Shown piece after piece: positions 5,028 through 11,077 of a DNA stretch of 64,000 nt. Location of the stretch: contig NZ_JACHIJ010000003.1 of NCBI RefSeq assembly GCF_014203115.1, forward strand, positions 186,001 to 250,000, given 5' to 3'. How positions within the stretch are numbered: the first letter of the stretch is position 1; every line of letters starts with the position of its first letter. This DNA is from Afipia massiliensis (GTDB lineage: Bacteria > Pseudomonadota > Alphaproteobacteria > Rhizobiales > Xanthobacteraceae). Position numbers and translations under genes: made by a program. The notes under the pieces are model-generated. The model was not told the DNA's origin and made no database searches. It was given only the letters and a program-made list of their open reading frames with translations.

Positions 5028-5486
5028 CTACCGCCCGGTGGAACCAAACCCGCCGCTGCCACGATCGGTGGGCGACAGCGATGCAACTGTCACAAGATTT
5101 GCCTGCGTCACGGCAGCGATGACAAGCTGGGCGATGCGTTCCCCGCGCCTGATCGTGAATGGCTCGTCGCCATGATTGATCAAAAGCACTGAAACTTCGC
5201 CGCGATAATCGGCATCCACTGTGCCCGGCGAATTGAGAACGGTGACACCGTGCTTGAGTGCGAGTCCGGAGCGCGGCCGCACCTGCGCTTCATGGCCGGG
5301 CGGCACCGCGATCATCAGCCCGGTCGGCACCAGCGCGCGCTGCCCCGGTTGCATCGTCAGCGGCTTGTCCTCGGGAACCGCCGCCAGAAGATCAAGGCCC
5401 GCGGCATGCGCGGTCTGATACACCGGCAGCGCGAGGCCTTCGGCATGCGGCAGGCGCTGGATATCGACGGCAATGGCAGTCGTCAT
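5028..5486 (-). CDS. dut: Deoxyuridine 5'-triphosphate nucleotidohydrolase (dUTPase)
   Basis: A 152-residue trimeric dUTPase that hydrolyses dUTP to dUMP and pyrophosphate, keeping uracil out of DNA and feeding thymidylate synthesis. The five family motifs are recognisable: AGLDLLA (1), RPRSGLA (2), the uracil-pocket stretch [14 protein letters not shown] (3), RGERIAQLV (4) and the glycine-rich C-terminal arm [10 protein letters not shown] (5). Its ATG overlaps the coaBC stop codon (ATGA), so the two genes form a translationally coupled pair, an arrangement common in proteobacteria. Length is normal and nothing looks altered. Confidence 0.97.
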
Positions 5487-6901
5487 GAATTCTGTTGTCC
5501 TATCGTGCTGGCGATTTTTGCGACGAGCGCGTCGGCGACTTCCTCTTTGGTCATCACCGGCCAGGAATCAACCGCGACCTCGGCGTTATCCCGCGTGAGA
5601 ATGTGGACGGTGTTGCGGTCGCCGCCCATCACGCCGGACGCAGGCGACACATCGTTGGCGACGATCCAGTCGCAGCCCTTGCGCTTCAGCTTCGATGTCG
5701 CGTTCTCAATCAGATTCTGGGTTTCGGCGGCGAAGCCGATCACCAGTTGTGGCCGGTTTTGCTGGTGTTTTGAGATCGTGGCGAGAATGTCCGGGTTCTC
5801 CACCAATTGCAGCGGCGGCATGCCGCTCGCGGTCTTCTTGATTTTCTGCTCGCCGGCATTTGCGATGCGCCAGTCGGCCACGGCAGCGGCGAAGATCGCG
5901 ATATCTATAGGCAATGCGGCTTCCACTTGCGCCAGCATGTCGCGCGCGGACTCCACACGGATGACGCGGACGCCGGTGGGATCGTCCAGATCGACCGGAC
6001 CAGAAATAAGCGTCACGTCCGCACCGGCCTCGGCGGCGGAGGCAGCGATGGCATACCCCTGCTTGCCGGAGGAGCGGTTGGCGATATAGCGCACCGGATC
6101 GATCGGCTCGTGGGTCGGGCCAGCCGTGATCAGGATCTTCTTGCCTGCAAGCGGCCCCGTTTGCGGCGGGCGCAGCATCGCCTCTGCGGCGACGGCAATT
6201 TCGGTTGGTTCCGACATGCGGCCGACGCCGGCCTCGTTGGCTTCGGCCATCTCGCCGGAATTCGGACCAATGAAGCTGACGCCGTCGTGCGCGAGTTGCG
6301 CGACGTTGCGCTTGGTCGCGACGTTGGCCCACATCAGCGGGTTCATCGCAGGCGCCACCAGCACTGGACGGTTGGTCGCGAGCAGGATCGCGGTGGCAAG
6401 GTCATCGGCATGGCCCTGCGCCATCTTGGCCATCAGGTCGGCGGTGGCGGGTGCGACGATGATCAGGTCGGTATCGCGGGCGAGGCGGATATGTCCGGCG
6501 TCGAACTCGCTCTGGGCATCGAACAGATCCGTGTAGCAGCGCTCGTCGGCCAGCGCCCCGGCGGTGAGCGGGGTGACGAATTGCTGGGCGGCGCGGGTCA
6601 TGACGCAGCGGACATGGATGTCGCGCTCCTTCAGGCGGCGGATCAGATCGAGCGCCTTGTAGGCGGCGATGCCGCCGCCGATGATCAGCGTGACCCGTGG
6701 GAGATCGGTCGCGGACGAGGCGCGGGCCCGGTGCGGCTGGTTTCGCGCGGGGCCTGATGGAGGTTTGACGGCCTGAGGCTCGGCAGCCTCGCGCAAGATC
6801 ATCCGGACCTCATCCTCCACCGAGCGGCCGGCCTTGGCGGCGCGCAGCCGGAGGCTGGCTTTGAGGGCTTCATCGAGTTTGCGGACGGTCAGGCTGGCCA
6901 T
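5483..6901 (-). CDS. coaBC: CoaBC with an N-terminal FitA-like ribbon-helix-helix domain
   Basis: A 472-residue bifunctional enzyme of coenzyme A synthesis: CoaB couples 4'-phosphopantothenate to cysteine (CTP-dependent) and CoaC decarboxylates the product (FMN). CoaC spans about 68-245, with the active-site His in AGHIRLA and the PAMNPLMW motif; CoaB follows, with the KIKK signature (EQKIKK). The unusual part is residues 1-45 ([20 protein letters not shown]...), which read as a FitA/VapB-type ribbon-helix-helix antitoxin domain, joined by a 20-residue Pro/Arg-rich linker. No toxin gene is adjacent. An AGGAG site sits 6 nt before this ATG, so the extension is translated. A promoter with phased repeats lies directly upstream. 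Confidence 0.93.
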
Positions 6902-6924
6902 GACATGCTCCTAAACGAGCGTCA

Positions 6925-6953
6925 TTCATAGCAAACGATAGCATTGCAATCAA
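6925..6953 (-). promoter_or_regulatory. Predicted sigma70-type promoter of coaBC with internal phased repeats
   Basis: On the minus strand TTGATT (6948-6953) and TATGAA (6925-6930) are 17 nt apart, a good -35/-10 pair, followed 12 nt later by the AGGAG ribosome site (6908-6912) of coaBC. Inside the promoter the hexamer TGCTAT occurs twice, at 6938-6943 and 6928-6933, exactly 10 bp apart. Same-face hexamer repeats are the usual operator form for ribbon-helix-helix repressors. The promoter is predicted by eye only. Confidence 0.5.
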
Positions 6954-6969
6954 ATCATGACTGCAATGC
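6941..6969. promoter_or_regulatory. Inverted repeat upstream of coaBC
   Basis: GCATTGCA (6941-6948) and TGCAATGC (6962-6969) form perfect 8-bp arms around a 13-nt spacer. The repeat overlaps the distal end of the predicted coaBC promoter and lies in the 75-nt gap between ubiB and coaBC. It could be part of an operator; a weak ubiB transcript-end hairpin is the other reading, although there is no T tract. Confidence 0.4.
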
Positions 6970-6976
6970 CATCAAT

Positions 6977-8545
6977 TTATCGGATGCTCCAGAGAATGCC
7001 GAGGAAGGTCAACGCGATCACCCACAGCGCCGCTGTCTGCCAGCGGGTGCGTTTCGCCTCGGCCTTGCCGATGGCGGCGACGGTTTCAGGCGCCAGCACC
7101 AGCCCGTCGCGGGTCATCTGGTCGAACTGGTTCAGCACGGCGACCGATCGCGCGGCAATCGCTGGCAGGCCGGCCAGCACCTTGCCGAGGTCGCCGGCGC
7201 CGTGCACGACACCTTCGATCTGACCGAGCGGGCCGAGGTTGCGCGCGATCCATTCGCGCACCACGGGATCAGCGGTAGTCCAGATGTCGAGTTTGGGGTC
7301 GAAGCCGCGCGCCACGCCTTCCACCACCACCATGGTTTTCTGCAGCATGATCAGTTCAGGCCGCGTGCGCATGTCGAACAGGCCGGTGACTTCGAGCAGC
7401 AGCGACAGCAATTTCGCCATCGAGATTTCGTCGGCGGCGCGGTTGTGGATCGGCTCGCCGATGGCGCGGATGGCCTGCGCGAAATTCTCCACCGAATGAT
7501 GTGCGGGCACATAGCCCGCTTCGAAATGCACCTCGGCGACGCGGTGATAGTCGCGGGTGATGAAGCCCAGAAGAATCTCTGCGAGGAAGCGGCGCTCCTT
7601 CAGGCCGAGCCGTCCCATGATGCCGAAATCGACCGCGACCAGCCGCCCGGTGTCGTCGACGAACAGATTGCCGGGGTGCATGTCGGCGTGGAAGAAGCCG
7701 TCGCGCAACGCATGGCGCAGGAAGTTCTGGATCACCTTGCGGCCGAGATCCGGCAGATCGATCTGCGCGGCTTCAAGTTTGGCGCGATCGTTCAGCGCGA
7801 TGCCGTCGATCCATTCCATGGTCAGCACGTGATGGCTGGTGCGGTCCCAATCCACCGACGGCACGCGGAAATCATGATCGTCGCGGGTGTTCTCCGCCAT
7901 CTCGGACAGCGCGGCGGCTTCCAGCCGCAGGTCCATTTCCATCGCAACCGACCGCGACAACGTATCGACGATCTCGACCGGGCGCAGCCGCCGCGCTTCA
8001 GAGGAGATAGCTTCGATCTTGCGCGCAGCAAACATGAAGTCGCTAAGATCGTGGCGAAACCGGCCGCCGACATTCGGTCGCAGCACTTTCACGGCAACGG
8101 TCGTGCGGACGCCGTCCTTTTCCACTTCGGCGCGATGCACCTGCGCGATGGAGGCGGCGGCGACCGACTCGCCGAAGCTCGCAAACACCTCAGACACAGG
8201 CTTATCGAACGCAGTGACAACCACGGCCTCCGCCTGCGCCTGCGGAAACGGCGGCAGGCGGTCCTGCAGGTTCTCCAGATCGCGCGCCATCGTGATGCCG
8301 ACCACGTCGGGCCGGGTGGCGAGAAACTGGCCGAGCTTAACATACGTCGGACCGAGCCGCGTCAGCGCGCGGGATAGCCGCCCGCTGGTGGCGGCGCCGC
8401 GCCGTTCGATCAGCCGCGCCATGCGAACCGCGAACTGCGCCTGCGGCGGCATGGTGGAGGGATCGGCGAAGCCGAACACGCCTTCGCGCGCGAACACGTA
8501 GCCCGCGCGCGCCAGTCTCAGGGTATGAGTGAGAGCAGAAATCAC
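6977..8545 (-). CDS. ubiB: UbiB family protein kinase-like, ubiquinone biosynthesis
   Basis: A 522-residue member of the ABC1/UbiB atypical kinase family needed for ubiquinone synthesis, where it is thought to act as an ATPase that helps extract or organise quinone intermediates at the membrane. The family KxGQ motif is present as [11 protein letters not shown], the Ala-rich loop as [10 protein letters not shown], the catalytic-loop region as [10 protein letters not shown] and the metal motif as VDFGIMG. A C-terminal hydrophobic segment (about 500-520) matches the membrane anchor of the family. Its ATG overlaps the ubiE stop codon (ATGA), forming a ubiE-ubiB operon. Confidence 0.95.
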
Positions 8546-10868: not shown

Positions 10869-11077
10869 ATCAGACCCTTCTGAACAACGCCTAGCATCCG
10901 CAACGTCTCAACACGTCGTCCCCACGCCGGCGGAAATCGCCGCGCGGACGAAATGGCAGAATGGTGACAGACTCCGGCGCATAAGGCGGCACGGTGACGA
11001 AACGGTGCATGCTATTTTCCCGCCTGGGCGCAAGGTGATTGCAGTGCAATCACACGTTCTCCGCCGCCAGCGCCGAG

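What the first reader, a model, noticed from the sequence alone, without database searches (positions are those of the whole stretch)
5483..6969. Antitoxin-like DNA-binding domain fused to CoaBC, with phased repeats in its own promoter
Residues 1-45 of CoaBC read as a FitA/VapB-type ribbon-helix-helix domain, followed by a flexible linker and the complete enzyme. No toxin gene lies nearby. Upstream, the hexamer TGCTAT occurs twice at a 10-bp interval inside a predicted -35/-10 promoter (17-nt spacer), and 8-bp inverted repeats (GCATTGCA/TGCAATGC) are next to it. This is what one expects if a coenzyme A synthesis enzyme acts as its own repressor, possibly sensing flux or CoA levels. If so, the domain has been taken from a toxin-antitoxin system for metabolic control. 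Fusion and repeats are seen; the regulatory role is inferred.
Basis: partly seen in the sequence, partly recalled or inferred. Interest (0 to 1): 0.72.

Follow-up and report, generated by a model that had tools for sequence, protein, structure and literature searches.

The report
CoA enzyme with an antitoxin-derived repressor domain
In Afipia, Bradyrhizobium and relatives, an enzyme that makes coenzyme A carries the DNA-binding half of a toxin-antitoxin pair, and matching DNA sites sit in its own promoter region; some relatives still have the whole pair in that spot, so the enzyme probably inherited the pair's self-repression switch.

Summary
CoaBC (window 5483-6901, -) has a FitA-like ribbon-helix-helix (RHH) domain at residues 2-40 (PF22513, E=1.8e-15). 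Just upstream lie two 17-bp pseudo-palindromes of the half-site TGATNGCA/TGCNATCA (6936-6952, 6958-6974). In 229 genomes examined, one locus each, such a site (2 mismatches or fewer, up to 1250 bp upstream) occurs in 121 of 141 with an RHH, fused or free-standing, and 0 of 88 without. In 27 genomes coaBC instead follows a free RHH gene plus a PIN toxin match, apparently as third gene of a toxin-antitoxin operon. Intermediates exist: a fusion keeping a whole antitoxin (L220), an antitoxin with a toxin stub before coaBC (L142), TA plus fusion in tandem (L261). The window's genome shows no PIN match and no other FitA-like match. Best explanation: the autorepression of a FitAB-type module was captured by CoaBC, which now represses its own promoter, as PutA does. 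DNA binding and CoA sensing are untested. New variant of a known kind; my searches of open-access papers found no report.

The parts
5483..6901 (-). coaBC with N-terminal RHH domain, 472 aa
6767..6901 (-). FitA-like ribbon-helix-helix domain (about residues 1-45; Pfam match 2-40)
   Evidence: PF22513 E=1.8e-15; FitA chains 2h1o/2bsq E about 1e-4
6698..6766 (-). variable linker (residues 46-68)
   Evidence: alignment consensus of 41 sequences
6206..6697 (-). CoaC (flavoprotein) domain, residues 69-232
   Evidence: PF02441
5597..6151 (-). CoaB (DFP) domain, residues 251-435
   Evidence: PF04127
6936..6952 (-). operator-like palindrome nearer to coaBC: TGATTGCAATGCTATCG (1 mismatch)
   Evidence: conserved in relatives
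6958..6974 (-). operator-like palindrome farther from coaBC: TGATGGCATTGCAGTCA (1 mismatch), 22 bp centre to centre from the other
6928..6943 (-). TGCTAT direct repeat, 10-bp interval; first copy lies inside the nearer palindrome, second may be a -10 element or a fifth half-site
6977..8545 (-). upstream ORF, ubiB-type (name recalled from sequence, not tested); ends 75 bp before coaBC
5028..5486 (-). downstream ORF, dut-type (name recalled, not tested), overlapping the coaBC stop by 4 nt
11036..11052 (+). third genomic copy of the palindrome (0 mismatches), intergenic; kept at 0-1 mismatches in 3 of 6 near relatives examined

Best explanation
The first 45 residues of CoaBC are the DNA-binding half of a FitA-type antitoxin. 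They descend from a FitAB-type toxin-antitoxin operon that sat directly before coaBC, with coaBC as its third gene. The toxin gene, and usually the toxin-binding tail, were lost, joining the RHH domain in frame to CoaBC and leaving the module's operator in front. The fused protein pairs its RHH domains, binds the half-site array (TGATNGCA at 9-bp pitch) next to the coaBC promoter and represses its own transcription; the oligomeric CoaBC core takes over the clamp role that FitB plays for FitA. Shown: the fusion, its conservation and selection, the half-site array, its link to the RHH domain, the RHH-PIN-coaBC loci and intermediates at the same address. Inferred: DNA binding, repression, the direction TA to fusion in most lineages, the oligomer as clamp. 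Speculative: that CoA, acyl-CoA or substrate occupancy tunes binding.
For: Domain: PF22513, FitA structures. Operator and RHH, one locus per genome, up to 1250 bp: site at 2 mismatches or fewer in 121 of 141 with RHH, 0 of 88 without. Near the start: 98 of 111 fused rows, 0 of 90 rows without RHH; reversed-pattern control 0 in every class. Independent pairs on supported branches: 8, on average 5.1 agree, 0.0 disagree, 2.9 tie. Half-site steps in f1 are mostly 9 bp. Selection: pairwise dN/dS 0.14 for the domain against 0.09-0.10 for two CoaC segments in 25 genus-mates. R7 in 112 of 112 and T5 in 111 of 112 fused genomes by profile alignment. Origin: 27 unfused genomes with RHH then PIN match before coaBC, Pfam-confirmed in the seven proteins tested; an ORF of toxin size ends within 20 nt of the inferred coaBC start in 25 of 27. 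Intermediates L220, L142, L261, L260.
Against: No DNA-binding or expression data. The relatedness-corrected test is small: median p 0.0625 (range 0.03-0.25) for any RHH, 0.125 for fused against none. 20 of 141 RHH genomes have no site at 2 mismatches or fewer: 10 fused, 10 TA. No sigma-70 consensus promoter. Deep branches of family f24 are already fused, so the direction TA to fusion is supported mainly by L220; elsewhere TA re-invasion is possible. The own genome has 16 further two-mismatch sites against 2 for the reversed control, unexplained. FitA binding is helped by FitB (PMC3920265, passages); whether CoaBC can replace it is unknown. ATG at codon 34 and TTG at codon 36 lie inside the domain, so a truncated, RHH-less product is not excluded.
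Confidence: 0.8

Rival explanations
1. The inverted repeat between ubiB and coaBC is an intrinsic terminator or attenuator hairpin, not an operator.
For: flags 6974-6936 as terminator-like: 17 pairs, loop 5, followed by TTTGCTATGA; mean of shuffles 0.1.
Against: Only 6 of 17 pairs are G-C. In other genera the array is arranged differently, e.g. two direct half-sites plus one inverted (>9>9<); the constant is the 8-bp half-site at 9-bp pitch. Sites also precede the free antitoxin gene in 17 of 27 TA loci and are absent from 88 of 88 genomes without RHH.
Confidence: 0.06
2. The domain is a retained antitoxin that still neutralises a PIN toxin encoded elsewhere.
For: It descends from an antitoxin.
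Against: The own genome has no PIN match at E<=0.001. Two tail patterns that hit 20 of 29 free antitoxin ORFs occur in only 2 of 113 fused extensions.
Confidence: 0.03
3. Domain and repeats are inert relics of a decayed TA module.
For: Decay products exist: L142 has an antitoxin plus a toxin stub, L103 a PIN match reduced to 17 residues.
Against: dN/dS of 0.14 on the domain, R7 in 112 of 112 fused genomes, half-sites kept through changes of arrangement, and no sites in genomes without RHH.
Confidence: 0.06
4. The RHH domain mainly oligomerises or localises CoaBC; DNA binding is secondary or lost.
For: CoaBC is a dodecamer in mycobacteria (PMC7794376, abstract and passages); RHH domains dimerise (general knowledge).
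Against: Strand residues T5 and R7, expected to face DNA (inference from the RHH fold), are nearly invariant, and operator-like sites co-occur.
Confidence: 0.05

Closest known systems
PutA (trifunctional proline utilization A)
   Same: N-terminal RHH on a metabolic flavoenzyme that moonlights as autogenous repressor (PMC5293562, abstract).
   Different: Different enzyme and pathway; here the RHH is FitA-type and relatives show a toxin-antitoxin pair at the same address; repression and ligand switching are not shown here.
FitAB / VapBC-type toxin-antitoxin modules (N. gonorrhoeae FitAB; PDB 2h1o, 2bsq)
   Same: FitA-like RHH and paired half-sites upstream of its own gene. I recall the gonococcal operator half-site as having the same core, but searches did not show its letters.
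   Different: No toxin and no recognised toxin-binding tail in the window protein; the RHH is attached to an enzyme.
CoaBC of other bacteria (e.g. mycobacteria, PMC7794376)
   Same: Same two enzymatic domains in full length.
   Different: No N-terminal DNA-binding domain; outside families f1 and f24 none of the listed matches starts at residue 1 or 2 of the query (lists 10 and 36 are truncated).

Membership tests
CoaBC (TIGR00521) | Full-length match over curated cut-off | tested here: met
   401.8 bits, cut-off 219.7, profile positions 5-391 of 392
FitA-like RHH (PF22513) | Match over gathering score | tested here: met
   57 bits, cut-off 27, residues 2-40
FitAB toxin-antitoxin module | Adjacent PIN toxin gene | tested here: not met
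   Locus classed FUSED, no PIN hit within 1500 bp upstream; no PIN match in the genome
FitAB toxin-antitoxin module | Toxin-binding C-terminal tail on the antitoxin | tested here: not met
   Neither tail pattern present; 2 of 113 fused extensions have one, against 20 of 29 free antitoxin ORFs. Other tail types would be missed.
FitAB toxin-antitoxin module | Inverted half-sites upstream of its own gene | tested here: met
   Two palindromes at 6936-6974
RHH-fused autorepressing enzyme (PutA-like) | RHH domain N-terminal to a complete metabolic enzyme | tested here: met
RHH-fused autorepressing enzyme (PutA-like) | Binds operator and represses own promoter | not testable with these tools
   Comparative evidence only
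RHH-fused autorepressing enzyme (PutA-like) | Ligand or redox switch of DNA binding | not testable with these tools
   CoA thioesters inhibit mycobacterial CoaB (PMC7794376, passages); no evidence here

The most novel reading that the evidence does not exclude
An enzyme of coenzyme A synthesis has domesticated the autorepression circuit of a toxin-antitoxin module. In one set of relatives coaBC is the third, translationally coupled gene of an antitoxin-toxin operon; in others the toxin is gone and CoaBC is itself the repressor, its oligomeric core doing the clamping the toxin did and CoA or acyl-CoA occupancy setting repression. The fusion arose more than once. TA modules may persist by holding an essential gene in their operon, and domestication frees the host.
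Probability: 0.4. Interest if true: 0.88.

Novelty: new variant of a known kind. Interest (0 to 1): 0.76.

Why it matters
It offers an extant series from toxin-antitoxin operon, through decay intermediates, to a fused metabolic autorepressor, all at one chromosomal address. That makes the old question of what chromosomal TA modules turn into directly testable. It predicts a transcriptional control of CoA synthesis at the CoaBC step in a large group of bacteria that includes Bradyrhizobium and Afipia; my searches found no description of one. It is also a natural experiment on whether an enzyme oligomer can replace a toxin as co-repressor scaffold.

Tried and rejected
Gene-model error: rejected. 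CoaBC regulon: in this genome no further site with 1 mismatch or fewer besides coaBC and 11036; the 16 two-mismatch sites (reversed control 2) were not followed, so weak targets are not excluded. Antitoxin in trans: unlikely. Internal start in the linker: none between codons 36 and 101, but ATG 34 and TTG 36 lie inside the domain. Literature on the fusion or on TA-coaBC: searches returned no paper; one search returned two and one, which by their listings concern other subjects and were not opened; some searches were background. Only open-access papers were searchable. Makarova 2009 (PMC2701414, passages only) has 0 occurrences of 'phosphopantothen'.

Limits and dropped rows. The f24 loci were taken from the best matches to a fused protein, so proportions there are not frequencies. 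One search dropped loci whose core alignment began after core residue 15 or gave under 380 aa, and identical cores; its 235 rows still held three genomes twice (G012, G016, G037, all fused), removed. One search left out L108, L118 and L242 (under 300 bp upstream, or contig edge); 18 rows have under 1250 bp upstream. One search left out L104 and L278 (start not recognised) and L108, and took a wrong start for L247; L104 shows a site by eye. L103 counts as TA although its PIN match is 17 residues. Conservation of R7 was circular (my selection pattern required it); I redid it by profile alignment.

Full report
WHAT IS THERE. The gene at 5483-6901 (-) is one open frame of 472 aa. Its core is a complete CoaBC: TIGR00521, 401.8 bits over residues 69-463. 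Residues 2-40 match Pfam's FitA-like RHH at E=1.8e-15, and the closest solved structures by sequence are FitA chains 2h1o and 2bsq (E about 1e-4). Residues 46-68 are a variable linker. There is no in-frame ATG, GTG or TTG between codons 36 and 101, but ATG 34 and TTG 36 lie within the domain, so a truncated product is possible. The nearest named relatives are Afipia. The neighbours (ubiB-type upstream, dut-type downstream; names recalled, not tested) lie on the same strand, and the gap before coaBC is 75 bp.

DISTRIBUTION. In the window's family (code f1), 291 of 296 genomes have a CoaBC match. The list is truncated to the best; every listed match starts at query residue 1 or 2 except G229, where a frame break separates domain and core (L017). 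In a second look at 80 f1 genomes that I chose from lower in that ranking, 75 have a match, some starting at residue 1-2 and others at residue 32 or later. In the order sample (144 of 150 with a match) the listed matches that start at 1 or 2 belong to f1 and f24 (list truncated). In the class sample only the window's own does (104 of 142 with a match). In the phylum sample the listed ones again lie in f1 and f24 (365 of 398 with a match, list truncated).

THE OPERATOR. In the window they are at 6936-6952 and 6958-6974, one mismatch each. Genome-wide, three places have 1 mismatch or fewer: these two and window 11036-11052. At 2 mismatches there are 16 more, against 2 for the reversed control; I did not follow them. 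In f1 promoters half-sites follow each other mostly at 9 bp (123 steps; next 13 bp, 23), against 0-2 half-sites per 150 bp in a control stretch farther upstream. The arrangement differs between genera (two palindromes, or two direct plus one inverted), which argues for protein binding rather than an RNA hairpin.

ASSOCIATION. First set: 69 of 72 fused loci had a site at 2 mismatches or fewer within 150 bp, and 0 of 84 unfused loci within 300 bp (one of 85 was too short); two of the three misses had it farther up. Larger set of 235 rows (113 fused, 2 fused with an extra RHH, 27 TA, 2 RHH only, 91 none), near the start: 98 of 111 fused, 2 of 2 fused-plus, 17 of 27 TA, 2 of 2 RHH only, 0 of 90 none; the reversed pattern gave 0 at that threshold in every class. 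Of the 13 fused misses, six (L244, L252, L253, L256, L259, L267) show tandem half-sites by eye, L160 has a site farther up, and L247's start was misassigned. One row per genome and one common span of up to 1250 bp: 100 of 110 fused, 2 of 2 fused-plus, 17 of 27 TA, 2 of 2 RHH only, 0 of 88 none; so 121 of 141 with RHH and 0 of 88 without. Relatedness matters: on supported branches there are 8 independent pairs, on average 5.1 agreeing, 0 disagreeing, 2.9 tied (median p 0.0625); fused against none gives 4 pairs, 3.8 agreeing (median p 0.125). In a separate named set, partly the same species, 52 of 54 fused loci have a site and 0 of 23 loci without RHH or PIN do (79 of 80 loci usable).

SELECTION. 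Among 25 fused loci of the genus, pairwise dN/dS is 0.14 for the domain and 0.09-0.10 for two CoaC segments; in 11 of genus g25 it is 0.12 against 0.11. By profile alignment R7 is present in 112 of 112 fused genomes and T5 in 111 of 112; that they face DNA is inferred from the RHH fold.

ORIGIN. 27 unfused genomes have an RHH gene followed by a PIN match before coaBC: 24 in f24, 2 in f1 and 1 in f35. Pfam confirms FitA-like RHH or PIN in the seven proteins tested. An ORF of toxin size ends within 20 nt of the inferred coaBC start in 25 of 27, ten with a 4-nt overlap (the script's choice of ORF and start is loose). So coaBC there looks like the third gene of a toxin-antitoxin operon; co-transcription is inferred. 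Intermediates: in L220 the fused protein keeps a whole antitoxin, 65% identical over 81 residues to the free antitoxin of L231, tail pattern included, while its sister L226 has the TA pair. In L260 the fusion also keeps a tail. In L142 a free antitoxin with tail is followed by a few codons like the start of the toxin of L109 and then coaBC (my reading). In L261 an RHH-PIN pair precedes a fused RHH-CoaBC. Core trees need at least 26 state changes in 235 rows and 17 in 73 rows, with TA/fused sister pairs inside single genera (g108, g338, g356, g369). Deep f24 branches are fused, so which state is older there is open, as is whether f1 and f24 fusions are separate events.

MECHANISM. FitA binds DNA by its RHH, and FitB promotes binding without touching DNA (PMC3920265, passages); FitAB is a hetero-octamer on 36 bp (PMC5086665, passages). 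CoaBC is a dodecamer in mycobacteria and its CoaB step is inhibited by CoA and acyl-CoAs (PMC7794376, abstract and passages). The simplest reading is that the oligomeric core replaces FitB as clamp and the fused protein shuts its own promoter when abundant. Whether CoA occupancy adjusts this is a guess. PutA is the known precedent for an RHH enzyme that represses its own operon (PMC5293562, abstract).

WINDOW GENOME. No PIN match at E<=0.001 (the control search rang in 10 of 14 known genomes) and one FitA-like match, coaBC itself. Neither toxin neutralisation nor cross-talk with another FitA is likely here.

NOT DONE. No structure model. No binding or expression data. Of ten searches of open-access papers, searches were aimed at the fusion or a TA-coaBC link and turned up no report of either.

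Recounting lowered the association figures slightly (121 of 141 genomes instead of 124 of 144 rows) and showed one circular statistic, redone; the truncated-start caveat and the two-mismatch sites were added, and I lowered confidence from 0.82 to 0.80 for these.

Noticed in passing
window 11036-11052: A perfect copy of the palindrome lies between the 3' ends of a mutM-type and a protease-type gene (names recalled), on the - strand ahead of a small ORF (within 10891-11049). It is kept at 0-1 mismatches in 3 of 6 near relatives (L372, L373, L374). Possibly a second target of the repressor or a relic.
   Followed up: partly
L261 (G713) upstream of coaBC: An RHH-PIN pair stands directly before a coaBC that already carries a fused RHH domain.
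   Followed up: partly
L136 and L235, about 570-910 bp upstream of the coaBC core: Two different FitA-like RHH genes in a row before one PIN gene and coaBC; the address seems to collect modules of different types.
   Followed up: no
L362 (Kaistia dalseonensis), 437-23 bp upstream of the coaBC core: A PIN match stands directly before coaBC without an RHH match at my threshold; perhaps a module with another antitoxin type.
   Followed up: no
L017 / L304 (Afipia MAG): Domain and CoaBC core are in different frames; either an assembly error or a broken fusion.
   Followed up: no
G000 genome, 16 places listed: Two-mismatch copies of the palindrome outnumber the reversed control 16 to 2; no cause was looked for.
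   Followed up: no
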